Below are positions 16,031 through 64,000 of a stretch of 64,000 bases of DNA, one piece after another (positions within the stretch are counted from its first letter, which is position 1; each line of letters begins with the position of its first letter). The position numbers and the translations under genes are program-made. The notes beneath the pieces are model-generated. The model searched no databases and had not been told where the DNA came from. It saw only the letters and a list, made by a program, of their open reading frames with translations. Source of the DNA: Procambarus clarkii (lineage: Eukaryota > Arthropoda > Malacostraca > Decapoda > Cambaridae); contig NC_091176.1 of NCBI RefSeq assembly GCF_040958095.1, forward strand, positions 45,727,374 to 45,791,373, given 5' to 3'.

Positions 16031-17802
16031 TAAGTACTATTACGGGAAAGGATCGGGGGGGAGGTGCTCAAGAAAAAGGCATTTTAGAACCGTAGGAGGG
16101 GTAAAACCTTTAGGGATGCAGGTCATGGATGTACAGAACTGCGGAAGGACGACTCTCCACGGGGGCAAAGAAGAAACACGAAGAGAAACATTAGAAATAC
16201 GAACGGAAAACGAATCCTGTAAGCGAGATAACCGGACAGAAAAAGGGAGGTGATGAAGAGGAACAGGAACCGCAGGAGGAGTAAAAGTTAAAGCACAACA
16301 GAGGCGAGAGGAAGGATGTTGCAAGGACCGCGCAAGATAGCGAAGACAGCAGCGATCACGGCGATCCTGAGGAGATAGGAAGCCAGTGTCAACATGCAAG
16401 CTGAGGGTGGGAGTCGAACGAAAGGCACCAGAAATGAGGCGCAACCCAGTATGATGCAAAGCATCAAGACGGCGAAGCGTAGAAGGAGAAGCAGACGAGT
16501 AAGCAGGGCAACCATAATCGAGCTAAGACAGGACGAGAGAGTAATGTAGTGCAAGGAGTGCGCGCCTATCCGCTCCCCAAGAAGTATGGGACAATACCCG
16601 AAGGAAGGCAAGGGCCTTAGAGCACTCAACACTGAGGTAAGAGATATGTGGAGACCAAGACAAAGTAGTGTCAAAAAATAACCCCAAAAGCTTCGCGGAA
16701 TCTTTGTACTCAAGGGGATGACCATGAAGTGACAGAGGGACGAAGAAAGACCCGTTTCCCAGTTAAAGTCATGACAAGTCTTTGTAGTAGAGAACTAAGC
16801 CATGATCGGTGGCCCAAGACGACACGACATCAATCTCAAGTTGAAGCTGGCGTTGAAGGAGAGGCGAATCATCACCCTGACAGCAAAGGGTAAGATCATC
16901 GACAGAGCGAAGACGACGCCTGAAGGAAGAGAGGAAAGAAGACCACTGAGGGCAACCAGAAAAAGTAGTGCTCAGAACACTACCCTGGTACATACCTTCG
17001 TATTGCTGAAATGAGGCAAAGAGAACAGTACCAAGCCTCACCCGAAAGGAACGACGAGAGAGGAAGCTGCTGAAAAAGAGGGAGATGACCACGAAGGCCA
17101 AATGAATGAAGCTGGGATAGAATACGAAATTGCCAAGACGAGTCGTAAGGCTTTTACAAGACAAAAACGACAGCAATAACGATGGTCTTCCCAGCAAAAG
17201 CAGTACGAATATAGACCTCCAAGTTCACCGGGACATCTGTTGTGCTGCGCCACTTGCGGAAGCCAAATTGATAAGAGGAGAGATGGTGATTGTGTTCCAG
17301 GAACCACAGACGAACATTTACTATACGTTCAAAGTTTGCAGACAACTTTTGAGGGCAATATGGCGAAAGTCCTTAGGGGATGATCCCAGAGACCCTGGCT
17401 TGCAAACAGGGAGGACAACAGCATCGAGCCAGTCCTCAGGGACTGACGACGACTCCTACATCCGATTATTCAGACTTGGTATATACCGAGACGTGCACAG
17501 AGAGAGATGGCGAAGCATCTCATAAGGAATGTCATCGGAGCCCGCCGCCGTAGAACCGCAGAGGGCCAGGGCAGAACGAAGTTCAGAGAGAGAGAGAGAC
17601 AGAGAGAGAAAGGGATCATTATAGGGAAGTCGAAGACGAGTGCAGAAATCTAAATGCCAAGATTCAAGGAGAGGTTAACGAAGAAGGAAAGATTGAGGAA
17701 GATGAAGACCAGAGCTAACAGAAGGAAAGTGGGAACCCAGTTCGGTAGCAACGTGCAACGGGTCCGCCACAAGAGTACCACGGAGGTGAAGGACCGGTGA
17801 AA

Positions 17803-18494
17803 CATCGGGAAAGAACTTACCCGCTATCTTGCGGATACGCTTCTAGATCTGTGGCAGGGGAGTTTTGGACGTAATGGGGGATATATAAAATGCCCAACAT
17901 TCACGTTTAGCTGTATGGATGGCCCTACAGGCCACCGAACACGCCTTCCGAAAGAAAAGAATCGTCCGTCTGCCGACGGCGGGCTCTCTTCCAGGCTGCA
18001 CGCTTACAGCAGACAGCCCGAGCACAGTCTGCATTCTACCAAGGAATGCACTTCATGGACCCCGAGAGGAAGAGCGAGGAATAGAGCGGAGGGCAGCGTC
18101 GAATAGAGCGGAGGGCAGCGTCGAAGACAGTGTCATGAATAAGAAGAACATCGGGAAAGAACTTACCCGCTATCTTGCGGATACGCTTCTAGATCTGTGG
18201 CAGGGGAGTTTTGAACGTAATGGGGGATATATAAAATGCCCAACATTCACGTTTAGCTGTATGGATGGCCCTACAGGCCACCGAACACGCCTTCCGAAAG
18301 AAAAGAATCGTCCGTCTGCCGACGGCGGGCTCTCTTCCAGGCTGCACGCTTACAGCAGACAGCCCGAGCACAGTCTGCATTCTACCAAGGAATGCACTTC
18401 ATGGACCCCGAGAGGAAGAGCGAGGAATAGAGCGGAGGGCAGCGTCGAATAGAGCGGAGGGCAGCGTCGAAGACAGTGTCATGAATAAGAAGGA
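17803..18494. repeat. 346-bp direct tandem duplication in LINE copy E
   Basis: The block beginning near 17803 (ACATCGGGAAAGAACTTACC) is repeated 346 bp later with almost no change, including a nested doubling of GAATAGAGCGGAGGGCAGCG at the end of each unit. The duplication lies in the endonuclease-RT linker and destroys the frame. Confidence 0.85.
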
Positions 18495-39950: not shown

Positions 39951-40112
39951 AGGATAACAGTGGCTATTGATGTACCGCGGTGGTACATCATTTTGACAAT
40001 TTTGACAGTGACACTATAGCCTTAGTGATAACTTACAACAGCCTTGAGAGCTCTGAGCCACAGAACGGGGTGTCGGTGATTGGCTGAGGTTGGTGACGGA
40101 ATGACCAGCTTG

Positions 40113-41192
40113 GGAGGGTCCTAGGAGACCACTACCACCTGGTGGCAGGGTCCTGGGAGACCACTCCCGACTGGTGGCAGGGTCCTGGGAGACCACTCCC
40201 GACTGGTGGCAGGGTCCTGGGAGACCACTCCCGACTGTTGGCAGGGTCCTGGGAGACCACTGCCTCCTGGTGGCAGGGTCCTGGGAGACCACTGCCCCCT
40301 GGTGGCAGGGTCCAGGGAGACCACTGCTCCCTGGTGGCAGGGTCCAGGGAGACCACTGCCCCCTGGTGGCAGGGTCATGGGAGACCACTGCCCCCTGGTG
40401 GCAGGGTCATGGGAGACCACTCCCGACTGGTGGCAGGGTCCTGGGAGACCACTCCCGACTGGTGGCAGGGTCCTGGGAGACCACTCCCGACTGGTGGCAG
40501 GGTCCTGGGAGACCACTCCCGACTGGTGGCAGGGTCCTGGGAGACCACTCCCGACTGTTGGCAGGGTCCTGGGAGACCACTGCCTCCTGGTGGCAGGGTC
40601 CTGGGAGACCACTGCCCCCTGGTGGCAGGGTCCAGGGAGACCACTGCTCCCTGGTGGCAGGGTCCAGGGAGACCACTGCCCCCTGGTGGCAGGGTCATGG
40701 GAGACCACTGCCCCCTGGTGGCAGGGTCCTGGGAGACCACTGCCCCCTGGTGGCAGGGTCCAGGGAGACCACTGCTCCCTGGTGGCAGGGTCCAGGGAGA
40801 CCACTGCCCCCTGGTGGCAGGGTCATGGGAGACCACTGCCCCCTGGTGGCAGGGTCCTGGGAGACCACTGCCCCCTGGTGGCAGGGTCCTGGGAGACCAC
40901 TGCCCCCTGGTGGCAGGGTCCAGGGAGACCACTGCCCCCTGGTGGCAGGGTCCTGGGAGACCACTGCCCCCTGGTGGCAGGGTCCAGGGAGACCACTGCC
41001 CCCTGGTCGCAGGGTCCAGGGAGACCACTGCCCCCTGGTGGCAGGGTCCTGGGAGACAACTGCCCCCTGGTGGCAGGGTCCTGGGAGACCACTGCCCCCT
41101 GGTGGCAGGGTCCTGGGAGACAACTGCCCCCTGGTGGCAGGGTCCTGGGAGACCACTGCCCCCTGGTGGCAGGGTCCTGGGAGACCACTGCC
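40113..41192. repeat. 32-bp minisatellite, about 34 units, with CTCF-like core
   Basis: The unit GACCACTGCCCCCTGGTGGC + AGGGTCCTGGGA repeats with a strict 32-bp period. Because 32 is not a multiple of three, every frame is open, which explains long spurious proteins on both strands. Units with CCGACTGG, CTCC and CCCC variants occur in a set order that repeats after 320 bp (the odd CGACTGTTG unit at about 40232 and 40552), so there is a ten-unit higher-order repeat. About 18 units contain CCACCAGGGGGCAG on the minus strand. Confidence 0.9.
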
Positions 41193-41923
41193 TCCCTTTG
41201 ACATACGTCTCTGCTCCTCTATCTACAGTACGACGCAACTGGCACTTTTGAACCTCTTATCATTTTCTACATCAACGCGTCTCCCAACATTTGTCCTGGT
41301 GCAATCATCGCGGATAAATCCTTCATGCAAACTGTACCTACTGTGAGAGTTTGAAGATAAGTGGAATAATGAAATGGTTGAGGAATTGAGCTCGGAAAAT
41401 TTCCTAGAATTTTCTTTAACCTTTATTCCTGTCGTGATATTCAGTTAGGTCGCCTGAGGAAGGACTTGCTTAGCTAACACACCAGTGTAGTGAGCAGCTC
41501 ATTCCTCACTCTGGGACCAGATATGAACAATTGACTAGGCTTGAGCTAACGCCGAGACTCAAAAAAAGTTGAAATCCCCTCCACTTGGGCCGTCGACCTT
41601 CGCCATTCGCCGAAGTGAATCTAGCGAGTAGGTCCTGGGCTCTCACAACAATAATTTATTGTTGTATGGTGCCGTATATTTAGTCCAAAACCCATGAATC
41701 AGTCTCAATTTTAATAGTCGAGTGAGAAGAATCACTTGCAGGGCATTAATAATGTGTGGGGTGTAACGAAAAGACAGTGTTGAGCATAAGAACTTAGTTT
41801 ATTCAATAAAGTACTAACTACTACAACAAAACAAAAAGAAATATCAATAACGTTACTCGAAATCCTTCCTGTGACACTATCAATGACAGCTAGACACCAG
41901 CCCCTCGGACTGCATAATGAACT
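41193..41923. other. Non-coding interval
   Basis: No convincing coding frame. 41740-41923 looks like the left part of a sequence that continues after the retroposon at 44414; both sides contain ACGTTA-type motifs. Confidence 0.4.
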
Positions 41924-50806: not shown

Positions 50807-50864
50807 GAGAGAGACACATGGTTAGTGAAGCTCAGGCCTTCAGTGGTGGAGGTTGCGCGTGTCC

Positions 50865-51190
50865 TAGCTGGCTGCCACAGCCGCCACCACCACCCGCCAC
50901 CGCCCGCCACCAGGCACCACCGCCCGCCACCAGCCGCCATCGCCCGCCACCAGCCACCATCGCCTGTCAACAGCCACCAACGCCCGCCACCAGCGACTAC
51001 CGCCTGCCACCAGCCACCACAGCCACCACAGCCACCACCGCGCCTCCAGCAGCTGCCACAAGGCGCCACTACCCACCACAGCCACCACTGCCCGCCACCA
51101 GCCACCACCGCCCGCCACCGCCGCCACCATGCCCACCACAGCCGCCAGCGCCCGCCACCAGCCGCCACCGCCCGCCACCACCCACCACAG
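50865..51190. repeat. CCACC(G/A)CCC-type trinucleotide-rich repeat
   Basis: About 325 bp of imperfect CCACCGCCCGCCACCAGCCA units between the hAT element and the foldback element. Long open frames here are artefacts of the repeat. Confidence 0.85.
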
Positions 51191-51242
51191 CAGTAGTAGG
51201 GAGTACGACTCACAGGTAACTTTTTTTTCAGGCCAGAGATCA

Positions 51243-51266
51243 CCTGTGAGTCGTACGACTCACAGG
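51243..51266. other. Perfect 24-bp palindrome near left terminus
   Basis: Half-site CCTGTGAGTCGT followed by its exact complement; the half GACTCACAGGTAAC also occurs 51207-51220. The mirror copy is at 63875-63898. Confidence 0.85.
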
Positions 51267-51989
51267 TAACTTTTGTTTTGAGGTCCAATATCCCGCGTGA
51301 GAGTGAGGGTTTTCAGGTAAATTTTGTGTCACAGATTTTAGAAGTTGTTAAAGTTCTTATGATGAAAATAATTTCCGAGACTTAGAAGTTTGTTAAAGTT
51401 CTTATGGGAGAAATTCAAATTCGTGTTTATGAGCCAGGGTTTTCAGGTAAATTTTGTCAGTCACAGATTTTAGAAGTTGTTAAAGTTCTTATAATGAAAA
51501 ATAATGTCATACGAGTTTGTTAAAGTTCTTTTGATGAAAATAATTTCGGAGACTTTAGAAGTTTGTTAAAGTTCTTATCAAGAGATAATGTCATACGACT
51601 TTTGTTAAAAGTTCTCATGGGATTCTTACTTAGAAACTAGTATATCTGAATCATTTCACAGCCGTCCCTTTTCATCTCCCTCCCCCCTTACCTCGCAATC
51701 TGTCGCCGCACCTGTGTTTACTTTTAGACCGTCAGCCAGACGCAGCCTTCAGGTCACCTCGGTAATCTTATCTTATCTTCTCCATAATATTATCTGGACC
51801 GTCCTTCTCCTTCATATTGTTCATTCATAGTTCCTTTTCATTAAACTATTCAGTTTTACATATATAAACAAAGTCAGGGACTAGCTCACGTTCCCACCTT
51901 AGTTTTACTAATACATCTTCTTTAGTATCCAATCATTTTCTTCGAGATTTAAAACACAGCTATTTCAAACGTATTAAAATACAATAATT

Positions 51990-53060
51990 TTGTTATCGAG
52001 CTCCAGCTCCTATCCCCCGCCGTAGTCCCCTCTCGTATAATGAATACTAACAGTCCAATCCCTCTAAAATTTAAAAATAATCATATTTCAAACGTAGTTC
52101 AATACAGTAATTTAGTTACCGAGCTCCAGCTCTTATCCTCCACCTTAGTTCCCTTGCACATCTTCGTCAGCCTAATCAAATTCCCTGAAACTTTTACCCT
52201 CTGTATTTCAGACGCAGTAAATAAGATCAAGTCAGTTACTGAGCTCCAGCTCTCATCCCCCCGCCTTACTTCCCTCTCGTGTCTTCGGTATTATCCTATC
52301 AAATTCCTTGAAATTTCTACCCTCTGTATTTCAGACGTAGTTTAGTAAATCAAAACAATTATCAAACTCTAGCTCTTGTCCCCCAGCTTAGTTCATTTGT
52401 ACAAGATCGTTAGTAACAGATCAATTTTCCCCGAAATTTAAAGCAGACATACTTCAAAGTTAGTAAATAAGATCAAGTCAGTTACTGAGCTCCAGCTCTC
52501 GTCCCCACCTTAGTTCTCTCTCGTATATTTGTAAATAACCCATCAATTCCCCTGAAATTTGTACCCTCTGTATTTCAGACATCGTAAATATGATCAAAAC
52601 AGTTATCGAACTCCAGCTCTCGTCCCCCACCTTAGTTCTCTCTCGTATATTTGTAAATAACCCATCAATTTCCCTGAAATTTTCACCCTCTGTATTTCAG
52701 ACACCGTAAATAAGATCAAAACAGTTATCGAGCTCCAGCTCTCGTCCCCAACTTAGTTCTCTCTTGTATATTTGTAAATAACCCATCAATTTCCCCGAAA
52801 TTTTAACCCTCTGTATTTCAGACATAGTAAATATTATGTAAACAATTACAAAACTCTAGCTCTTGTCCTCTGTCCAAGTTCATTCCTGTAAATTCATTAC
52901 TATCAGTCCAAATCCCCCTGAGATTTAAACACCCAACTACATTTTCAGACATAGTAAATAAAAACCAGTTCAGTTATCAAGTTTCAACTCTTGTCCCCCC
53001 AGCTTAGTTCATTTTGTACAAGTTCTTTATTTTCCAACTAAATCACCCTGAGATTTAAGA
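51990..53060. repeat. Tandem repeats of about 110 bp in left arm
   Basis: Roughly nine units share GAGCTCCAGCTCT..TCCCC, CTTAGTTC, ATCAATTYCCCTGAAATTT and CTCTGTATTTCAGAC. The right arm has the matching set at about 62080-63150. They contain no usable frame. Confidence 0.8.
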
Positions 53061-54071
53061 TCACCTTATTTCTAACGTAGTAAAATTAATCTGGACATTA
53101 GCCAAGCTCCATTTCCTCAGCCTTAGATCATCAGACATCAATATATTCGATCAAGTCCATCTCCCGCCTAACTCTTATCCGAGTACTCACATAACCCCAA
53201 CCTGTGTAATTATCTTTCATCCCCTCTCACATTCCTCCGTCTCATCCAAGTCTCATAAATTTAAATGTAGCTGTTAATTTGCGTTCTTTCCCCGTTCATA
53301 GCATATTCTCTGTAAGTTCAGATCTGTACTTAGTCTTACATATTCTCTAGTTCTTTCCATTTTATACAAGACTTAAACAACTATTACTGTGTCCCCTATC
53401 TTATTTAAACATGAGTCATATGTAAATATATCCAACTCCTTCCATCCATTACAAGTCCTAGCGTGTTCACCGCCAAACTCACTACGCTATTTCTACTTTA
53501 CATGTTATAGCATGTTTTCCGCGCATCTTGGTACCAACCCTTACAATCTCTCTCAATCCTTTACACATCTCAGCATGTTCGCCTCGCATCTCACTAAGCT
53601 GTCTACTTTACATGTTGTAGCATGTTTTCCTGCACATCTTGATACCATCCCTTACAATCTCTCAATCCTTTACACGTCCCAGCATGTTCCCCCGCCCAAC
53701 TTTCAACCCTTTCTTACAATTTTCCTCCATCCTTCCGCTACATGTTCTTACCCGTTCATTACAGTCCACTACATATTCTCTATTCATCTTTGTACTAATT
53801 CGCAAAACTAGTTGTTTCTGTCATTTTAGTAAGTAAGTAGATCATCGTTATTAACAACAACAACAACAACAACAGTAACATTACTAATTCACAGTGAGTT
53901 ACTTCAGAGCATTTAGTAGTTATCCATTTTTTCAAATAAGGTCAATATAAATCATTCTAAGACATCTTCGTACAATTAAAGATACTTGCCTGTGCACTAA
54001 GTCATTACTTACAGTAGCATCTTAAGGCATTGTTTTCGTAACTCAGTTTTATTAAACATACACCTTCATTA

Positions 54072-54360
54072 CAGTCTCTGTGGTGTAGTGGTAAGACACT
54101 CGCCTGGCGTTCCGCGAGCGCTATGTCATGGGTTCATATCCTGGCCGGGGAGGATTTACTGGGCGCAATTCCTTAACTGTAGCCTCTGTTTAACGCAACA
54201 GTAAAATGTGTACTTGGATGAAAAAACGATTCTTCGCGGCAGGGGATCGTATTCCAGGGACCATAGGATTAAGGACTTGCCCGAAACGCTACACGTACTA
54301 GTGGCTGTACAAGAATGTAACAACTCTTGTATATATCTCAAAAAAAAAAAAAAAAAAAAA
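54072..54360 (+). repeat. tRNA-derived SINE inserted in left arm
   Basis: A tRNA-like head has an A box (GTGGTGTAGTGGTAAGAC) and a B box (GGGTTCATATCC). An unrelated body follows, then a tail CTTGCCCGAAACGCTACACG shared with the LINEs at 27190 and 47402, and a run of about 21 A. It sits in TTCATT|AGTC; TTA or ATTA is duplicated at 54069-54071 and 54361-54363. The right arm (61075-61085) shows the empty site. Confidence 0.85.
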
Positions 54361-54526
54361 TTAGTCAAAGGAAACTTTTCAAGTCATTGTATTCAATATT
54401 TCCGTTAAACTTACTACAACATGTCATTATTCGGTTGCATAATTAAGTACTTGTTTTAGTCCTCCAATGTATTAAGCAAATTATTCTATTAAGGATAAAG
54501 AAATCTTATTTAGAAGAGACATTGAG

Positions 54527-54532
54527 TTTATT
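54527..54532 (-). terminator. Poly(A) signal in left arm
   Basis: AATAAA on the minus strand about 130 bases downstream of the methyltransferase-like stop. It mirrors the signal at 60906-60911. Confidence 0.6.
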
Positions 54533-54660
54533 ACAACATTTGACGCATACAGTTATTCAAAGAAGTTATACAAGTGTTCAAGAAAATCATATACAGTTAA
54601 TCATAGTAGTTATGCAATTATTCAAGAAATCATATACAGGTATTCAAGAAATCATAAACA

Positions 54661-56079
54661 CTACAGTCTTATATAGAAATATACATTTGAATTTAGAAAA
54701 GAATTATAAGTAAAACATGTATTTGATTTCACGCAATGAAACTCTCTAGCCAGCAAGTTAAAAAATCCATCACAGGCACAGCAACCCCCTTCCCCTTCTC
54801 CAAAATAGATTAGTTTTTGTCCCTTAAATTCCTTTAAAACATAGAATGCATCACTATAAACATTATCATCACAAATCAATTCAGGCCAGGACATTAGAAG
54901 TACTTCTCTGTCATTACAATAAGTCCTAACTGCTTCTACAGCATCCATTTGTTCAACCTCCATCCACTTACTCTCACCCATATTTGAGTAATTATCTGTA
55001 GCTCGTACCACATTAGTATGTCTTATCCTAATAAGATTTTCAATAAAGGCTATACCAGAGAAAACACCAAGTACAGGATCCTGTCCTATAAATCTCATCG
55101 CTGCCTCTATTTCTATCTTTTAGGGGGTATGATATCCTATTTCTGGTCTCATCTTTATTAAATTTAACGGAAAAGATGGAAAGCTCTCCTCCATATGATC
55201 AATTAAACTCCAATGTTCGTCTTCTTCCGTTTTAGGGTGAATAATACTTAGCTCTTTCACAGTCTTCCTATTTACCTGCTGCTGCAGTTCATCCTGGCTC
55301 ATTATAGTATACACTTCTCGTTCTTCAGATTTCAACTTATTAATAAACCAGTTCGCAGCATTTTGAGATCCAATTTCATCCACAAATTTTCTTATAAAAA
55401 ATTTATCCTTTAAGTTACATCCTATAGGCACTTCTTCAAATTCTGGAAATATGTATTTAAAACGGGGTCTAGGTCTAAAAGTGCAAATTATTTTATCGCC
55501 TTTAAATAACAAAGAAATTTTCTTCATCTCGGCCTTACTAGGAATTTTCGTCAACAACAACACTTGACAATTCTCATGTTTCTTGAGTACGTCTGTAACA
55601 CTCTCTTTTAAGCTAAATAAGACTATGTTACATTTTATCAATGGAAGTTCTTCTTTCAACTTTATAGAATCACGACCGATCAGTATCATTAAAACATTTT
55701 CACTTTTGCTAATAAACTTTGCTAGAGCCGGAAGAATGTTCTCATGCGTACATTTATCAGTATGGGTCATCACTTTATAAGTCTGTTTTTCCGCCAGGGG
55801 CATATTCCTCCACAAAACAGTCGAAGCTGGACTTTGCCATATAGTATCTGACACAAGATCAGGCGTACTTCCAAACCCTGGTAGAGTCTTCACATCCACC
55901 ACATTGGGTAAATCTTTAAACAAAAGAAAAATACAATATTTAACCCAGGGACTATTAAATAATCATAATATTTCAAAACTAAAAGATATTCAATAATAAG
56001 CAAAAATTATATCACAATAAATATAAACAAGTACTGTAAGTACATCATACAATAAGCACTTACTGTATACAGCAGCCAT
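54661..56079 (-). pseudogene. Methyltransferase-like gene, two exons, one in-frame stop
   Basis: Exon 1 is 56079-56064 (ATG, then GTAAGT donor) and exon 2 starts 55913 after a TTTAAAG acceptor, in phase 1. The frame runs to TAA at 55122-55120 and, without any shift, continues from 55119 to TAG at 54661. The downstream part fits a Rossmann methyltransferase-like family: a VLGVFSG block where the SAM loop belongs, VVRATDNYS, LLMSWPE and KLIYFGEGEGGCCACDGFF. The loop lacks the usual second Gly, so activity is doubtful. The upstream 260 residues are not recognised. The stop separates ..GYHTP from KIEIEA.., which look like one domain; it is a nonsense mutation, a readthrough site or a sequence error. 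A separate downstream start at 55098 is possible. Confidence 0.65.
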
Positions 56080-56353
56080 CGATCCGAGTATGTCTTCTCA
56101 CTGCAGGACCAAGATGGGGAGTTTATGGTATGACATATCCCAACCTAGCTTATCACATCGGAGATAGTTACGCTCCGCCCCTCTCTCTTAGCTGTAGTTT
56201 CCAAATTAGTTATATTTATTATTTTAGATCTACTAGTTTAACTAAGACATTCTCTTCCGTTTATTAGATCCACCCTCTACTTGTTTCTTCTCTCTCCCAG
56301 TCCCCGTAACATCTTCTCCAAGAGGTATACGAACCATTAATAATTCTTTTTTA

Positions 56354-56869
56354 TTATTCTTTAAAACATAAGCTAAATGGGCTAGTCCTGGAAAATAGTG
56401 TGTCTCCCATTCTTACTTCTTCTTCTTTACTCCATCCTATTCCGTCATTAAACCCAATACCATATGGAATAATTATACGCTGGATTAAATTATTATTTCT
56501 TGCTTGACAACAAATTTGTCTTATTGCAGATTTAAAACTCCAACGTTTAATAATATCTTTCTGTAATCCTAGATCTTCATTAGAGCTACTGTATTGAAGT
56601 CCTATAATATGAGGTTTTATTTCTGGTTCTGGAGATAAAGCAAGTACTATACCACCAGGAGTTATATTATTCTGTACCACTTCACACTCGGAAACTTTAC
56701 TGTAAGGATATTTTTCCCATAACAGTTGTGCAAATCCGCCAGATAAATTATGAGAATCGTAGACAAGACAGTCTCCAGGTTTTATAATTTCATCACTAGT
56801 AAAATCAGCATCTATAATACACTTATTTAAACGCTTAAGCTTCACTTGCATGTACATAGAACAATCCAT
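56354..56869 (-). CDS. Macro-domain protein 3
   Basis: 171 residues from an ATG with a TATA box (GTATATAG, 56905-56912) about 40 bases upstream. The macro fold is suggested by CLVYDSHNLSGGFAQLLWEK (34-53; first ligand loop with GG at 44-45), PGGI at 71-74 and IIPYGIGF at 133-140 followed by W146. Macro domains bind ADP-ribose and some remove it from proteins. The first-loop Asn found in gene 1 is absent here, so activity may differ. It lies between macro gene 2 and the methyltransferase-like gene, all on the same strand, and appears intact. Confidence 0.7.
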   Translation of the reverse strand: MDCSMYMQVKLKRLNKCIIDADFTSDEIIKPGDCLVYDSHNLSGGFAQLLWEKYPYSKVSECEVVQNNITPGGIVLALSPEPEIKPHIIGLQYSSSNEDLGLQKDIIKRWSFKSAIRQICCQARNNNLIQRIIIPYGIGFNDGIGWSKEEEVRMGDTLFSRTSPFSLCFKE

Positions 56870-57057
56870 CTTGAAGTAAGGACAGAAAAAGTTTCGTACC
56901 TCTTCCTATATACCCAGAAAAAGTAGAGTTGACATTTAGACATTAAAAAAGGGAGAAAATAAACACACGAGTTTCTATTTTGTTATTTAATGTGTAAAAA
57001 TGTACAATGTATTTAATTTGTAAAAATGTACAAAGTATAAATTATTTACAGACATTA

Positions 57058-57957
57058 TTATTCCCAATCCATCTTCTCTTCTAAATTTGTAAAACTACTA
57101 CTAACACACATTGTAACATTAGTATCAACAGACGTAGTAACATTAACAGGTGTTGAATTAATTGTATCAGACAACTTAGTGTTGATAGAAGGTGAAGTAG
57201 CATCAGCGGTAGCAGGCGTAGCATCATCTGCAGGTGTCCTAGCAGCATCAGTAGCATTAGTTGTGGGTCCATTTTGAAGAACAGCAATGTATGGAATCTT
57301 ATTTTCAAAGATGCCGTGGGTGGATGACTGAGGAGGAACGATGTTTTTGGGACGTACTATGAAGAGTACAATACCTCGTTTTCGTAGTTTTTGTCCTATT
57401 TTCTCAAGTATAGGCAAATATTTACTTTCCCATACTGCGCAGTTGTCCAAATATCTTGACATGCCAAACCCATATGGAATAATAATTCTCTTAACACATC
57501 TTTTAAGAATGTAAACAAGGGCTTCCTTCAGAGCATTTTCAAACCAGCGCCATCTCTGATATTCTGTATCTTTTTCAAGTCCATCGTAAAAATGTTCATC
57601 TAAACTTCGTACTTCACACGGAGGATTTTCATATGCTGGTAAAGTTGCAGGTCTACTAGCAAACTGAGTCACTAACCCAATAATAAGGGGTAGATGGGGA
57701 TCTTCATCCATCCTGTTGTTAAATTCAGGTGGTTCTCCAATATGTATACTGCCAGGGTTACTGCGATAAGATACAACAGCACGGTTTTTGTAAGGAAAGT
57801 TTTCACGATGTAATCTTGCATATGGGTAACGATCCCACAATCCTTGCACAATTTTACACATTTGTACACTCGTAGCATCAAGATCATACAATAAACAGTC
57901 GTGATTATTGTAGACAGACAGGGAGGCAAAGTCTCCAATAATAGTCTTGATCTCCAT
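57058..57957 (-). CDS. Macro-domain protein 2 with Thr/Ala-rich tail
   Basis: I place the start at ATG 57957 (MEIKTIIGDF), which aligns with the start of gene 1 and lies about 80 bases after a TATATA box (58036-58044). An open stretch upstream to 58080 has no ATG before 58038. The domain shows CLLYDLDATS and LWDRYPYARLH near 20-45, NPGSIHI and PYGFGMSRYLDNCAVWESKY. A long insertion (SRPATLPAYENPPCE) lies in the middle. The last 70 residues or so are Thr/Ala/Asn-rich and probably disordered. Ligand-loop Asn and GG are missing, suggesting ADP-ribose binding without hydrolysis or a new ligand. Confidence 0.65.
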   Translation of the reverse strand: MEIKTIIGDFASLSVYNNHDCLLYDLDATSVQMCKIVQGLWDRYPYARLHRENFPYKNRAVVSYRSNPGSIHIGEPPEFNNRMDEDPHLPLIIGLVTQFASRPATLPAYENPPCEVRSLDEHFYDGLEKDTEYQRWRWFENALKEALVYILKRCVKRIIIPYGFGMSRYLDNCAVWESKYLPILEKIGQKLRKRGIVLFIVRPKNIVPPQSSTHGIFENKIPYIAVLQNGPTTNATDAARTPADDATPATADATSPSINTKLSDTINSTPVNVTTSVDTNVTMCVSSSFTNLEEKMDWE

Positions 57958-58094
57958 AGCCTTGAATATCCAAGCTTGAAGTAGATTCTGACATCCAAGA
58001 AGAGGAGGATACCGTAAGAGATCACTCCGGGGAAGCATATATACATCTTTAGGCTGTGTGTAGAAACACTGCGCACACAAAGGGTTGCCAAGTG

Positions 58095-58715
58095 TTACTT
58101 GCTCTTCCTCTGCATAATCTCCTCGTTAAACAGTAATTTAACTTCCACTCCGTAGGGTTTTAACTGTTTATACAAAACTTCAATAACAGGAAGATAAGTA
58201 TTTTCCCAAACTTTATCACTTCGAACACAGGTAATCCCAATTCCTGTTGGTATTATAACTCTCATAATTTGAGGAGAGTCCTTGATAAAGTTAAATAAAT
58301 CTTTCATACCATTCTTGAAGTAGACGAGACAATTAATGGATGTATCTTTGTTTAATCCAGCGAGCATGTTTCTGTCTTTTGATTTTTCTATAATTCCCTG
58401 AGCAATGTTATTACTTTCTATAGGTAATCCAATACCGTATTGAGTGGCTATAGCAACAATATACGGAAGATTTTCTCCTTTAGAGATATGTATTGTTCCT
58501 GGTACCGGACGATCTTCAGGGATACATCTCTTAAGACTGTACAAGGGTCGGCGAACATTATAAGCGTCAGCATGAGGATATTTCTTGGCTAAGTCTAGGG
58601 CCATTCCTCGAGGAACACAGGATATACAGTTCACTCCGTACACAATACAGGTTTCATTATTACGAAATGAATCGTCGGTTAAATAACCCTGGCAAGTTGT
58701 CAGAACAGTATCCAT
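58095..58715 (-). CDS. Macro-domain protein 1
   Basis: 206 residues from ATG 58715. Macro signature: VYGVNCISCVPRGMALDLAK (25-44, with Asn29 and G37-M-A), PGTIHI at 72-77, and IIPTGIGITC at 154-163 followed by W170, which match the adenine/ribose loops of TARG1/DarG/Poa1-like macro domains. It is the best conserved of the three and the likeliest to bind or remove ADP-ribose. A TATAAG box lies about 80 bases upstream (58792-58797). The gene faces away from the IAP-like gene, sharing its upstream region, and ends about 50 bp before the TATA-like box of gene 2. Confidence 0.75.
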   Translation of the reverse strand: MDTVLTTCQGYLTDDSFRNNETCIVYGVNCISCVPRGMALDLAKKYPHADAYNVRRPLYSLKRCIPEDRPVPGTIHISKGENLPYIVAIATQYGIGLPIESNNIAQGIIEKSKDRNMLAGLNKDTSINCLVYFKNGMKDLFNFIKDSPQIMRVIIPTGIGITCVRSDKVWENTYLPVIEVLYKQLKPYGVEVKLLFNEEIMQRKSK

Positions 58716-59278
58716 GGTGAATTTTCTTCCTCGTAAGGTAGTAGATACGATCCAGATAGTCGTAATAATATTCCTAATGTGTGGTCCGCACTCTTATATT
58801 GGGGGGAATGTAAAAGTTACCACTTATTTGAATATATTAATAAGGATTTTTGTTACCCTAGATTATTATTATATATGACATTATAACTAATAGTATATTT
58901 CATTTTAGGATATAGATGCTTTAAGCATTTTTTTTTTAATTAGATTAAATAAGAATTTTCTACTAAATTATATATATATCTATCATTATGTATGGCAGCT
59001 ACGAATAATGACGTAACAGTATACTTTTAGCGAGATTGCCAAAGTGATGTATTTTTCTAATAAGTCTAATAAATAATGAAAGTAGTTTACTAAGTATTTA
59101 TATAAGAGCATTATTTAATTATGAAGCTTTAAGGATTTTTTAATAGAGAAGTATTTAGAGGAAATTACTGTCTATTATAAATGGGGAAACTGTTAAATAT
59201 GTAGCGATGTACGATACTTATTTTAGGGATATATATACTTGCTTATCCTACTCTAATAGTTAGTGCTGCCCTCACACG
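58716..59278. promoter_or_regulatory. Divergent promoter region of the cassette
   Basis: 560 bp between two oppositely directed genes. Minus side: TATAAG at 58792-58797. Plus side: GGATATATATACTTG at 59226-59240, about 40-50 bases before the IAP start. The middle is very AT-rich with no frame. Confidence 0.6.
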
Positions 59279-60733
59279 ATGGATCCTTTGTGTGCCAGGA
59301 AGTTTTACAGTATAGAAAGCCTTAAATGTGCAGGAGTTAGACTACAAACATTTGTGGATTGGCCTGTTAAGTGGTTAAACCCTATTGACTTAGTTGAAGA
59401 TGGGTTCTATTACCTCCGCAATAGTGATTACTGTTTGTGTGCATTTTGTTATTGTATAGTAGGTGCATGGATTGTTGGTGATACCCCCAGAAGACGTCAT
59501 AAGATGATTAATCAAGACTGTGCCTTTATTAGAGGCAAGAGGAGTGACAATGTTTCTTTAGAGGTGTCTGAGATAGCTTTCCAATATGGACTGGAATTTG
59601 TTTCCCATAAAATAGAACTGGGAAATAAGAAAATAAGTGATAGTAGTAAGTATATATTCTTATGATGTATTCTTATACCAGTCTTATATACTCTATACAA
59701 AACTTGCTTGCTTAAATAGGTACTTCTTATTCTTCTAAAGAATAATTTACATAACTACGTTATATTTTTTAGGTGGTGCTCCTCCCAAGGAAGATCTGGG
59801 ATTGATAAAATTTAGGAACTCTCTGAATCCAGGATTGGTAACTTATAAATGTCGCCTAGAGACATTTGATATGACATGGCCTGGAAGCGTTAAACAAACT
59901 TCTCATGAGCTGGCAGAAGCTGGTTTTTTTACTGTGGTATGAAGTGTTTTAACTATTTTAAACTTAATAGAGTTATAAGTAAAGGAATAATGAATATTAG
60001 TTAAAAGATAGTAACGAGATGATGCTGGATTGTTTTATGGTTTTCAGGTATAAGTGACCACGTCTGCTGCTATCATTGCGCCTGTGGAATACGAAATTGG
60101 AGACCAGAAGATGATCCTTGGACGTTACATGCGAGATGTAGCCCAGAATGTGCTTACATTATTCTTGCAAGGGGCAAGGAATTTGTTAAGAATGCTAGAT
60201 TGACAATACCATTACCTATAAAACCTATAGACAATGATTTAATTAATATCCTAATGGAGGGTATGGATATGTTCAAACATCTGATTCATCAAAAATTAAT
60301 ACCTGTTGAGAGTATAAGATATGCTTTAAGTGAGTACCTTAAGGAATCCAGAGATTTATTACCTTTTATTATACAAAGTAGATGTCTAGAAATAGTGTTG
60401 AGGTATATGCAAGAGGGTACAGATATTTATTTACGGGTACGGGACTTAATTTATGAAGCAGTTGATGATAAAGAGGAACAAGAAGTTACGCCTGAAGATC
60501 TGGGATTGAAAACTTTACCGGAGACTTGTAATAGCACTGTTGAAAACAAGGACTGTACAGAACAATCTTGGGAAGAAGATATTTTATGCAGAGTTTGTAT
60601 GGATAAAAATATAAATATTGTAATACTACCATGTAAACATATGGTGACGTGCAGCGGTTGTCTTTTATCTCTGAAATGCTGTCCAATTTGTAGAGGAAAT
60701 ATTTTATATATAATAAATCCAATTGCTTCTTGA
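59279..60733 (+). pseudogene. IAP-like gene: two BIR domains, UBA-like helix region, RING
   Basis: Exons 59279-59645, 59773-59936 and 60048-60733, introns GTAAGT..TAG and GTATGA..CAG. BIR1 (residues 21-84) has Zn ligands C54, C57, H74, C81. BIR2 starts in exon 2 (RLETFDMTWP) and has its C..C..H..C set in exon 3 (CCYHCACGIRNW). A helical, UBA-like stretch and a C3HC4 RING (CRVCMD..CKHMVTCSGC..CCPICRG) follow to a stop at 60733. IAPs bind caspases or signalling partners and act as ubiquitin ligases. The exon 2/3 junction is out of frame as written: the T7 run at 59924-59930 is one base short of what BIR2 needs. That could be a real frameshift or a homopolymer error, so I class it provisionally as a pseudogene. 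Its introns argue against an RNA-mediated copy. Confidence 0.75.
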
Positions 60734-60905
60734 ACATTGTATATGATTTCTTGAATAATTGCATAACTACTATGAATAACTGTATGTGATTTTCTTGAAC
60801 ACTTATGATTTCTTGAATAATTGCATAACTACTATGATTAACTGTATATGATTTTCTTGAACACTTGTATAACTACTATGAATAACTGTATGCGTTAAAT
60901 GTTGT

Positions 60906-60911
60906 AATAAA
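60906..60911 (+). terminator. Poly(A) signal in right arm
   Basis: AATAAA about 170 bases after the IAP stop, the mirror of 54527-54532, so both arms serve as 3' ends for the outward-reading genes. Confidence 0.6.
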
Positions 60912-63874
60912 CTTAATGTCTCTTCTAAATAAGATTTCTTTACCCTTAATAGAATAATTTGCTTAATACATTGGAGGACTGAAACAAGTACTTAATTATG
61001 CAACCGAATAATGACATGATGTAGTAAGTTTAACGGAAATATTGAATACAATGACTTGAAAAGTTTCCTTTGACTAATGAAGGTGTATGTTTAATAAAAC
61101 TGAGTTACGAAAACAATGCCTTAAGATGCTACTGTAAGTAATGACCTAGTGAACAGGCAAGTATCTTTAATTGTACGAAGATGTCTTAGAATGATTTATA
61201 TTGACCTTATTTGAAAAAATGGATAACTACTAAATGCTCTGTAGTAACTCTCTGTGAATTAGTAATGTTACTGTTGTTGTTGTTGTTAATAACGATGATC
61301 TACTTACTTACTAAAATGACAGAAACAACTAGTTTTGCGAATTAGTACAAAGATGAATAGAGAATATGTAGTGGACTGTAATGAACGGGTAAGAACATGT
61401 AGCGGATGGATGGAGGAAAATTGTTAGAAAGGGTTGAAAGTTGGGCGGGGGAACATGCTGGGACGTGTAAAGGATTGAGAGATTGTAAGGGATGGTATCA
61501 AGATGTGCGGTAAACATGCTACAACATGTAAAGTAGACAGCGTAGTGAGATGCGAGGCGAACATGCTGAGACGTGTAAAGGATTGAGAGAGATTGTAAGG
61601 GTTGGTACCAAGATGCGCGGAAAACATGCTATAACATGTAAAGTAGAAATAGCGTAGTGAGTTTGGCGGTGAACACGCTAGGACTTGTAATGGATGGAAG
61701 GAGTTGGGTATATTTACATATGACTCATGTTTAAATAAGATAGGGGACACAGTAATAGTTGTTTAAGTCTTGTATAAAATGGAAAGAACTAGAGAATATG
61801 TAAGACTAAGTACAGATCTGAACTTACAGAGAATATGCTATGAACGGGGAAAGAACGCAAATTAACAGCTACATTTAAATTTATGAGACTTGGATGAGAC
61901 GGAGGAATGTGAGAGGGGATGAAAGATAATTACACAGGTTGGGGTTATGTGAGTACTCGGATAAGAGTTAGGCGGGAGATGGACTTGATCGAATATATTT
62001 ATGTCTGATGATCTAAGGCTGAGGAAATGGAGCTTGGCTAATGTCCAGATTAATTTTACTACGTTAGAAATAAGGTGATCTTAAATCTCAGGATGATTTA
62101 GTTGGAAAATAAAGAACTTGTACAAAATGAACTAAGCTGGGGGGACAAGAGTTGAAACTTGATAACTGAACTGGTTTTTATTTACTATGTCTGAAAATGT
62201 AGTTGGGTGTTTAAATCTCAGGGGGATTTGGACTGATAGTAATGAATTTACAGGAGTGAACTTGGACAGAGGACAAGAGCTAGAGTTTTATAATTGTTTA
62301 CATAGTATTTACTATGTCTGAAATACAGAGGGTAAAAATTTCAGGGAAATTGATGGGTTATTTACAAATATACGAGAGAGAACTAAGTTGGGGACGAGAG
62401 CTGGAGCTCGATAACTGTTTTGATCTTATTTACGGTGTCTGAAATACAGAGGGTAAAAATTTCAGGGAAATTGATGGGTTATTTACAAATATACGAGAGA
62501 GAACTAAGGTGGGAGACGAGAGCTGGAGTTCGATAACTGTTTTGATCATATTTACGATGTCTGAAATACAGAGGGTAAAAATTTCAGGGGAATTGATGGG
62601 TTATTTACAAATATACGAGAGAGAACTAAGGTGGGGACGAGAGCTGGAGCTCAGTAACTGACTTGATCTTATTTACTAACTTTGAAGTATGTCTGCTTTA
62701 ATTTTCGGGGAAAATTGATCTGTTACTAACGATCTTGTACAAATGAACTAAGCTGGGGGACAAGAGCTAGAGTTTGATAATTGTTTTGATTTACTAAACT
62801 ACGTCTGAAATACAGAGGGTAGAAATTTCAAGGAATTTGATAGGATAATACCGAAGACACGAGAGGGAAGTAAGGCGGGGGATGAGAGCTGGAGCTCAGT
62901 AACTGACTTGATCTTATTTACTGCGTCTGAAATACAGAGGGTAAAAGTTTCAGGGAATTTGATTAGGCTGACGAAGATGTGCAAGGGAACTAAGGTGGAG
63001 GATAAGAGCTGGAGCTCGGTAACTAAATTACTGTATTGAACTACGTTTGAAATATGATTATTTTTAAATTTTAGAAGGATTGGACTGCTTAGTATTCATT
63101 ATACGAGAGGGGACTAAGGCGGGGGATAGGAGCTGGAGCTCGATAACAAAATTATTGTATTTTAATACGTTTGAAATAGCTGTGTTTTAAATCCCGAAGA
63201 AAATGATTGGATACTAAAGAAGATGTATTAGTAAAACTAAGGTGGGAACGTGAGCTAGTCCCTGACTTTGTTTATATATGTAAAACTGAATAGTTTAATG
63301 AAAAGGAACTATGAATGAACAATATGAAGGAGAAGGACGGTCCAGATAATATTATGGAGAAGATAAGATAAGATTACCGAGGTGACCTGAAGGCTGCGTC
63401 TGGCTGACGGTCTAAAAGTAAACACAGGTGCGGCGACAGATTGCGAGGTAAGGGGGGAGGGAGATGAAGGGGGACGGCTGTGAAATGATTTAGATATACT
63501 AGTTTCTAAGTAAGAATCCCATGAGAACTTTTAACAAAAGTCGTATGACATTATCTCATGATAAGAACTTTAACAAACTTCTAAAGTCTCCGAAATTATT
63601 TTCATCATAAGAACTTTAACAAACTCGTATGACATTATTTTTCATTATAAGAACTTTAACAACTTCTAAAATCTGTGACTGACAAAATTTACCTGAAAAC
63701 CCTGGCTCATAAACACGAATTTGAATTTCTCCCATAAGAACTTTAACAAACTTCTAAGTCTCGGAAATTATTTTCATCATAAGAACTTTAACAACTTCTA
63801 AACTCTGTGACACAAAATTTACCTGAAAACCCCCTCACTCTCACGCGGGATATTGGACCTCAAAACAAAAGTTA

Positions 63875-63898
63875 CCTGTGAGTCGTACGACTCACAGG
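63875..63898. other. Perfect 24-bp palindrome near right terminus
   Basis: Same palindrome as 51243-51266, placed symmetrically 52 bp from the outer end. Confidence 0.85.
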
Positions 63899-63950
63899 TG
63901 ATCTCTGGCCTGAAAAAAAAAGTTACCTGTGAGTCGTACTCCCTACTACT

Positions 63951-64000
63951 ACAAGAACAAGAAGTTACGCCTGAAGATCTGGGATTGAAAACTTTACCGG
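63951..64000 (+). pseudogene. Second piece of the IAP gene outside the right arm
   Basis: 63955-64000 is identical, base for base, to 60476-60521 (coding between the UBA-like region and RING), in the same orientation, and directly abuts the outer end of the right arm. It continues past the window. It may belong to another, rearranged element copy. Confidence 0.8.

What the first reader, a model, noticed from the sequence alone, without database searches (positions are those of the whole stretch)
51192..63950. Foldback-like element carrying a five-gene conflict cassette
Seen: 3.2-kb inverted arms made largely of tandem repeats, enclosing macro x3, methyltransferase-like and IAP-like genes with their own promoters. 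Known: Foldback/Galileo transposons have repeat-built arms; large DNA viruses can have inverted ends and carry IAP genes. Inference: a mobile or virus-derived module dedicated to ADP-ribose and apoptosis control. I know of no described element with this gene set.
Basis: partly seen in the sequence, partly recalled or inferred. Interest (0 to 1): 0.92.

Follow-up and report, generated by a model that had tools for sequence, protein, structure and literature searches.

The report
Maverick satellite carrying anti-death gene
A 12.8-kb piece of an animal genome is one of many copies of a virus-like jumping element that lacks the genes needed to copy and move itself and instead carries an anti-cell-death gene and four companion genes; it is probably moved by full-size relatives that have the same ends.

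Summary
The inverted arms and five genes are real. The right-hand join at 63950 is suspect: the flank is a piece of another copy's IAP gene, then 5,000 N, without a target-site duplication. The element is not a Foldback/Galileo transposon but a non-autonomous Maverick/Polinton. Its ends are (AGT)2...(ACT)2; perfect 6-bp duplications flank 9 of 12 copies read at both ends. A Maverick with the same ends (integrase, polymerase, packaging ATPase) lies in the same 4.03-Gb genome. The cargo (intron-bearing IAP, three macro-like paralogues, one 412-aa protein) is high-copy: 150 places scored of 1,932 candidates, none within 20 kb of the 89 polymerase places scored (of 3,495). Two genes show purifying selection (pN/pS 0.24, 0.30; shifted-frame controls above 1); for two others nothing is shown. 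A second family, 61% identical in the first macro-like protein and with other arms, keeps the IAP-macro-macro-macro order. Lengths cluster (35 of 43 end pairs at 11.9-13.7 kb) across full, carrier and gene-less copies, which suggests a packaging limit. Most likely it is a satellite mobilised by Mavericks whose cargo keeps cells alive. The boldest reading is a bipartite Maverick virus. The macro assignment is unproven.

The parts
51192..54634 (+). left terminal inverted arm (about 3.15 kb plus a ~288-bp insertion at 54072-54359); starts AGTAGTAGGGA
   Evidence: same start in other copies with other flanks
52124..52868 (.). about 122-bp tandem repeat array inside the left arm (mirrored at 62271-62963)
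54072..54359 (.). insertion with a poly-A tail, present in the left arm only; SINE-like by eye
   Evidence: a 98.6% identical stretch in L024
54661..55803 (-). one gene of unknown function (412-aa ORF in other copies), split in the window copy by an in-frame stop into 227-aa and 145-aa ORFs; C-terminal part matches phrog_19090 (unknown function, E 2.4e-10)
   Evidence: pN/pS 0.30
56354..56869 (-). macro-like paralogue 3 (frame-shifted near its end in the window copy)
   Evidence: pN/pS 0.24
57058..58038 (-). macro-like paralogue 2 with a low-complexity tail
58095..58715 (-). macro-like paralogue 1; 150 places scored in the own genome
59279..60733 (+). inhibitor-of-apoptosis gene with introns: BIR (59279-59665, Pfam), second BIR by eye (about 59776-60180), RING (60254-60733, Pfam)
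60804..63950 (-). right terminal inverted arm; ends CCCTACTACT; join to the right flank is suspect
63951..64000 (+). right flank: piece of another copy's IAP exon; the assembly then reads 5,000 N
50864..51191 (.). left flank: minisatellite insertion site

Best explanation
The element is a non-autonomous (satellite) Maverick/Polinton. Its long inverted ends are the parts a helper Maverick recognises: the helper's protein-primed polymerase would copy it and the helper's integrase would insert it with a 6-bp duplication. In place of the Maverick core genes it carries a cargo: an inhibitor-of-apoptosis gene with introns, three paralogues of a possible macro domain, and one further gene. Inferred function: the cargo keeps the cell alive and removes or blocks ADP-ribosylation signals while helper and satellite replicate. 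Element lengths cluster near the helper's length, as expected if copies were packaged in the helper's capsid. Shown: ends, duplications in relatives, termini shared with a Maverick that has polymerase and integrase, high copy number, no core gene seen in the carriers read, selection on two cargo genes, same cassette order in a second family. Inferred: mobilisation in trans, packaging, and the biochemical role of the cargo.
For: Ends AGTAGT...ACTACT are the commonest vertebrate Maverick end motif, and intact ones have 6-bp duplications (PMC8097293: passages, section 7). Perfect 6-bp duplications in 9 of 12 copies read at both ends (8 distinct sites), one with 5 of 6; none in the window copy or in its C123 counterpart. 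A copy with the same ends, C28:31898401-31911878, holds DNA_pol_B_2 (1.6e-6), rve (3.7e-9) and Pox_A32 ATPase (8e-8); two more inverted pairs contain that polymerase. 156 ends form 43 inverted pairs, median 12,472 bp, 35 of 43 at 11.9-13.7 kb; 1 pair in the opposite arrangement. Cargo: 150 places scored of 1,932 candidates, 140 without an internal stop; 0 of 150 within 20 kb of any of 89 scored polymerase places. pN/pS 0.30 (0.19-0.47) for the 412-aa gene and 0.24 (0.11-0.54) for macro-like 3, against 1.35 and 3.25 in the shifted frame. Second family at 61% identity, own 2.9-kb arms, CTTTCT duplication, AGTAGT ends, same IAP-macro1-2-3 order.
Against: No transcript, virion or mobilisation data. 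The window copy's two flanks do not match each other. The macro fold is not found by sequence, and the weak macro-type hits did not recur in other copies. Selection is not shown for macro-like 1 and 2 (intervals include 1 and the shifted frame gives the same values) or IAP exon 1; the copies compared are not all independent. The polymerase and cargo searches scored only 89 of 3,495 and 150 of 1,932 candidates, so their separation is shown for a part. The helper copy read has an in-frame stop in its polymerase, and Pfam named no capsid or protease gene in it.
Confidence: 0.78

Rival explanations
1. It is the second genome segment of a bipartite Maverick virus: one 13.5-kb segment replicates and builds the particle, this 12.5-13.2-kb segment supplies host-control genes.
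For: Same ends, similar length, two cargo genes under selection, separation of cargo and polymerase among scored places. Precedent: bidnaviruses have two linear segments packed in separate capsids, and the second is thought to have evolved from the first by gene replacement with the ends kept (PMC4061559, passages).
Against: Gene-less copies of similar length exist (8 of 8 read in the middle), which points to satellites that need no cargo. No particle evidence. Nothing shows that the helper depends on the cargo.
Confidence: 0.15
2. The cargo is a passenger captured by a defective Maverick, with no function for the element.
For: Cargo capture by Mavericks is reported in nematodes (PMC10680173, passage). 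The window copy is partly decayed. Selection is not shown for macro-like 1 and 2.
Against: pN/pS 0.24 and 0.30 among copies for two genes; same cassette order at 61% identity in a second family.
Confidence: 0.1
3. It is a fragment of an endogenous nimavirus, a large DNA virus of crustaceans.
For: Nimaviruses carry intron-bearing IAP genes and wsv206-like proteins said to contain a macro domain, and insert in repeats (PMC7016691 and PMC10871703, passages).
Against: 12-13-kb units with Maverick ends and 6-bp duplications. Nimavirus genes were not searched for, as no nimavirus sequence was at hand. Nimaviruses remain a possible source of the cargo.
Confidence: 0.04
4. It is a Foldback/Galileo (P-superfamily) transposon.
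For: Long inverted arms partly built of tandem repeats.
Against: 6-bp duplications and AGTAGT ends shared with an element that holds integrase and polymerase. Galileo's 7-bp duplication is recalled, not looked up.
Confidence: 0.02
5. The window's inverted structure is an assembly artefact.
For: Right flank is an IAP fragment followed by 5,000 N; no duplication; the C123 version of the locus has a different right arm.
Against: The window's arms differ by 1-3% and by an insertion, and other copies have arms with matching duplications. The doubt applies only to the right join of this copy.
Confidence: 0.03

Closest known systems
Maverick/Polinton elements (polintoviruses)
   Same: (AGT)2...(ACT)2 ends, 6-bp target-site duplications, inverted arms, length near 13 kb; a member with polymerase and integrase in the same genome shares the ends
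   Different: No polymerase, integrase or ATPase gene seen in the carriers read; arms of about 3 kb against 46-1,447 bp in intact vertebrate Mavericks (PMC8097293); cargo of IAP plus three macro-like genes
Nematode Mavericks with cargo genes (Widen, as reported in PMC10680173; passage only)
   Same: Maverick-borne cargo genes
   Different: As reported there, Mavericks code for their own machinery and took up cargo; here cargo and machinery were found in separate elements
Bidnaviridae (bipartite, Polinton-derived polymerase; PMC4061559, passages)
   Same: A second linear unit with the same ends but other genes
   Different: Single-stranded segments of 6-6.5 kb in particles; here double-stranded genomic elements of 12-13 kb
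Foldback/Galileo transposons (recalled)
   Same: Arms partly built of tandem repeats
   Different: Ends, duplication length and helper
Endogenous nimaviruses (PMC7016691, PMC10871703; passages)
   Same: Intron-bearing IAP genes, reported macro-domain proteins, preference for repeat sites
   Different: Genomes near 265-285 kb; other ends and integrases

Membership tests
Maverick/Polinton | 6-bp target-site duplication | tested here: met
   9 of 12 copies perfect (8 distinct sites), 1 with 5 of 6, none in the window copy and in C123
Maverick/Polinton | AGTAGT...ACTACT end motif | tested here: met
   (left end of C40 copies has one mismatch); motif described in PMC8097293
Maverick/Polinton | terminal inverted repeats | tested here: met
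Maverick/Polinton | protein-primed polymerase and rve integrase in the element (autonomous member) | tested here: not met
   none among the window ORFs by Pfam nor seen in L048 and L049; present in the same-ended C28:31.9M element. Hence filed as a non-autonomous derivative only
Maverick/Polinton | capsid genes | tested here: inconclusive
   candidate ORFs in the helper without a capsid match in Pfam; none recognised in the carrier
Inhibitor of apoptosis (IAP) | BIR and RING domains | tested here: met
   BIR 2e-14, RING 4.5e-13; second BIR by eye only
Macro domain (PF01661) | match to the family model | tested here: not met
   no match at E<=1; genome search with PF01661 scored 8 candidates, 3 matches, none in these elements
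Macro domain (fold) | alpha/beta/alpha macro fold | tested here: inconclusive
   model of the family-2 macro-like 1 protein, pLDDT 75, pTM 0.75, alternating strands and helices; the fold search did not complete. Weak sequence hits: DarG 0.14, PDB 5m3i 0.19, phrog_335 phosphatase 0.042; not repeated in other copies
Foldback/Galileo | terminal sequence and duplication of the P superfamily | tested here: not met
   6-bp duplications; the family's own values are recalled
Nimaviridae | nimavirus core genes | not tested
   no nimavirus sequence at hand; only literature passages

The most novel reading that the evidence does not exclude
An animal genome hosts a Maverick virus system with division of labour: Mavericks of about 13.5 kb that replicate and integrate, carrier segments of similar length (12.5-13.2 kb) that hold a selected anti-apoptosis and possibly ADP-ribose cassette, and gene-less foldbacks of similar length filled with repeats. 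The common length would mean that all three are packed into the same capsid, so the length distribution would be genomic evidence that Mavericks form particles in an animal.
Probability: 0.25. Interest if true: 0.92.

Novelty: new variant of a known kind. Interest (0 to 1): 0.75.

Why it matters
Maverick particles had not been observed as of 2021 (PMC8097293, start of abstract). Satellites and gene-less elements held near the helper's length would make packaging testable. A mobile cassette with an anti-death gene in many copies would also be a source of IAP genes in animal genomes, and resembles the cargo reported for crustacean large DNA viruses.

Tried and rejected
Foldback/Galileo and nimavirus-fragment readings were set aside on the ends and duplications. 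Macro identification by sequence failed: Pfam, NCBIfam (weak, none), PHROGs (weak, one copy), PDB profile and single searches (weak; 75, 120-122 none), hhalign against E. coli YmdB and the genome's own macro gene (probability 0.1, no better than the reversed control). Viral contigs gave no relative of macro-like 1, the 412-aa protein or the polymerase. Phage records gave only hits at E 0.3 or worse. Rfam and tRNA scans of the window gave 0 matches. In the listings of seven literature searches I recognised no described element of this kind; a search for six phrases such as 'non-autonomous Maverick' found 0 papers. That library holds open-licence PMC papers only. A first pN/pS run had a frame error for two genes and is replaced.
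Full report
What was checked. The window is C27:45727374-45791373 of an unnamed 4.03-Gb assembly. The reported arms exist: 51192-54634 and 60804-63950 pair in blocks of 97-100% complementarity. The left arm alone holds a ~288-bp insertion with a poly-A tail. About a third of the left arm is tandem array. The genes are an IAP gene on the plus strand (BIR 2e-14, RING 4.5e-13; introns by eye) and, on the minus strand, three paralogous ORFs (28% identical to the first) and a gene that is one 412-aa ORF in other copies but split by a stop here. The window copy is partly decayed: that stop, a frameshift near the end of macro-like 3, and an IAP exon 2/3 join that looks out of frame. Copies without these defects exist.

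The right end. Beyond 63950 the window shows 50 bases that contain a 45-bp exact piece of the IAP exon (60477-60521); the assembly then has 5,000 N starting exactly at the window's end, either a gap or a withheld stretch. The left flank is a minisatellite ending CACAGC and the right flank begins ACAAGA, so there is no target-site duplication. Contig C123 repeats the left flank (99.4% over 8 kb) and the next 10 kb (98.8%), but its right arm is only 85-90% identical and runs into another flank, also without a duplication. Contig C87 shows the left junction a third time. Contig C117 carries the same IAP-to-arm junction as the window's right end, next to a short derivative made of 198 bp of arm tip and 205 bp of IAP. 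The right join of this copy is thus probably a misjoin or a recombination product.

The family. Central-region DNA gave 40 scored places of 440 candidates, main hits 94-100% identical; arm-end DNA gave 40 scored of 2,150 candidates. Counts are inflated by duplicates in the assembly, for example two C40 copies 241 kb apart with the same flanks. At distinct sites the flanks differ up to the AGTAGTAGGGA start. Of 12 copies read at both ends, 9 have perfect 6-bp duplications at 8 distinct sites (ACTATA in both C40 copies, GCGAGG, TATGGG, ACCCTC, CAGGTC, CAAAAT, ACTACC, CTTTCT), C39 has 5 of 6, and the window copy and C123 have none. For two further carrier copies sought, one end (C59) or no end (C5) was found in the pieces fetched. 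Vertebrate Mavericks most often begin (AGT)2 and end (ACT)2, and intact ones have 6-bp duplications (PMC8097293: passages, section 7).

The helper. The same-ended copy C28:31898401-31911878 (TATGGG on both sides) holds polymerase (DNA_pol_B_2 1.6e-6), integrase (rve 3.7e-9) and Pox_A32 ATPase (8e-8); Pfam named no protease or capsid among the other seven ORFs searched. Its polymerase is interrupted by a stop in this copy and was searched as two ORFs. One of them scored 89 places of 3,495 candidates at 97-100% identity, 84 of 89 without an internal stop. Two further inverted pairs of ends, C147 and C45, contain that polymerase. The helper's arms match over about 1.07 kb at 96%.

Three classes, similar length. 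A pattern for the ends gave 151 genome matches and 0 for the reversed pattern; the first 100 places were listed. From and direct reading, 156 ends form 43 inverted pairs of median 12,472 bp, 35 of 43 between 11.9 and 13.7 kb; the opposite arrangement occurs once. Some pairs are assembly duplicates. Of the 35 pairs known, three hold the macro-like gene and three the polymerase. Of the other 29, eight were read in the middle (six of them chosen because neither gene was scored there): by eye all eight are gene-less foldbacks built of repeats; their ORFs were not searched in Pfam. C46, the 19-kb outlier, contains what looks like a non-LTR retroelement. None of the 150 scored macro-like places lies within 20 kb of the 89 scored polymerase places; 9 of 150 and 4 of 89 lie near a typed end.

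The cargo. Macro-like 1 scored 150 places of 1,932 candidates: 130 at 77-100% and 20 at 61-62%; 140 of 150 have no internal stop, and dozens share the same score. pN/pS among eight copies is 0.30 (0.19-0.47) for the 412-aa gene and 0.24 (0.11-0.54) for macro-like 3; the same test read one base off gives 1.35 and 3.25. IAP exon 3 gives 0.25 (0.08-0.67) from two copies only. For macro-like 1 (0.60), macro-like 2 (0.43) and IAP exon 1 (0.29), three copies each, the intervals include 1, and for macro-like 1 and 2 the shifted frame gives the same values, so nothing is shown there. One copy of the 61% family (C13:49815121-49828056, 12,936 bp, arms 2.9 kb at about 99%, CTTTCT duplication, AGTAGT ends with otherwise different arms) keeps IAP, macro-like 1, 2 and 3 in the same order and orientation, but has another ORF where the 412-aa gene would be. 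The cassette seems older than the present copies and has been kept through a change of arms.

What the macro-like proteins are. The motif order resembles that of Poa1p-like macro domains (recalled). For macro-like 1 there are weak hits on macro-type entries, DarG 0.14 and PDB 5m3i 0.19, and on a phage 'phosphatase' family 0.042. They did not recur: NCBIfam gave nothing for a near-identical copy or for family 2, PHROGs and PDB nothing of the kind for family 2. Pfam, PDB-profile, genome-wide PF01661 and hhalign searches are negative. A predicted structure of the family-2 protein (pLDDT 75, pTM 0.75) has alternating strands and helices, but the fold comparison did not complete. Reported nimavirus wsv206-like proteins contain a macro domain and nimaviruses carry intron-bearing IAPs (PMC7016691, passages; PMC10871703, passages). 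This suggests a shared pool of cargo and was not tested by sequence.

Insertion sites. In 31 readable flanks (one of 32 dropped for N), 21 have at least half of the 200 bp next to the element in tandem repeats; grouped by eye this is 11 of 17 distinct sites. Of 2,000 random 200-bp pieces of the window outside the element, 3.6% qualify; the control comes from one 50.8-kb stretch only, and 14 of the 31 distal flank pieces also qualify.

How it most likely works. Shown: a dispersed element with Maverick ends, without recognised Maverick machinery, with selection on at least two cargo genes. Inferred: helper polymerase and integrase act on its ends; the common length reflects packaging; the cargo blocks cell death and perhaps ADP-ribose signalling. 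The nearest precedent for the bold reading is the bidnavirus second segment, thought to derive from the main segment by gene replacement with the ends kept (PMC4061559, passages). Cargo-bearing Mavericks are reported in nematodes (PMC10680173, passage). Novelty: a new variant of a known kind.

Noticed in passing
window 40111-41197: 34 copies of a 32-bp tandem repeat (95% matches), open in several frames.
   Followed up: no
window 17801-18492: Two copies of a 346-bp unit, 99% matches.
   Followed up: no
G000:C42:19548745-19583426: Three element ends on the same strand 17.23 kb apart, as in a tandem array of 17-kb units.
   Followed up: no
G000:C40:38982522 and C40:39224064: Two copies with the same flanks 241 kb apart: segmental duplication or uncollapsed haplotype.
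   Followed up: partly
window right flank 63951-63968: The right flank starts ACAAGAACAAGAAG, a doubled 6-mer against the IAP exon; it looks like a 6-bp duplication or footprint in the IAP exon.
   Followed up: no
flanks of the elements (L009-L037, L056-L062): Elements sit often inside minisatellites (11 of 17 sites grouped by eye), which recalls the repeat preference reported for nimaviruses.
   Followed up: partly
L049 8753-9358 (-): A 202-codon ORF without a Pfam match lies where the 412-aa gene would be in the second carrier family.
   Followed up: partly
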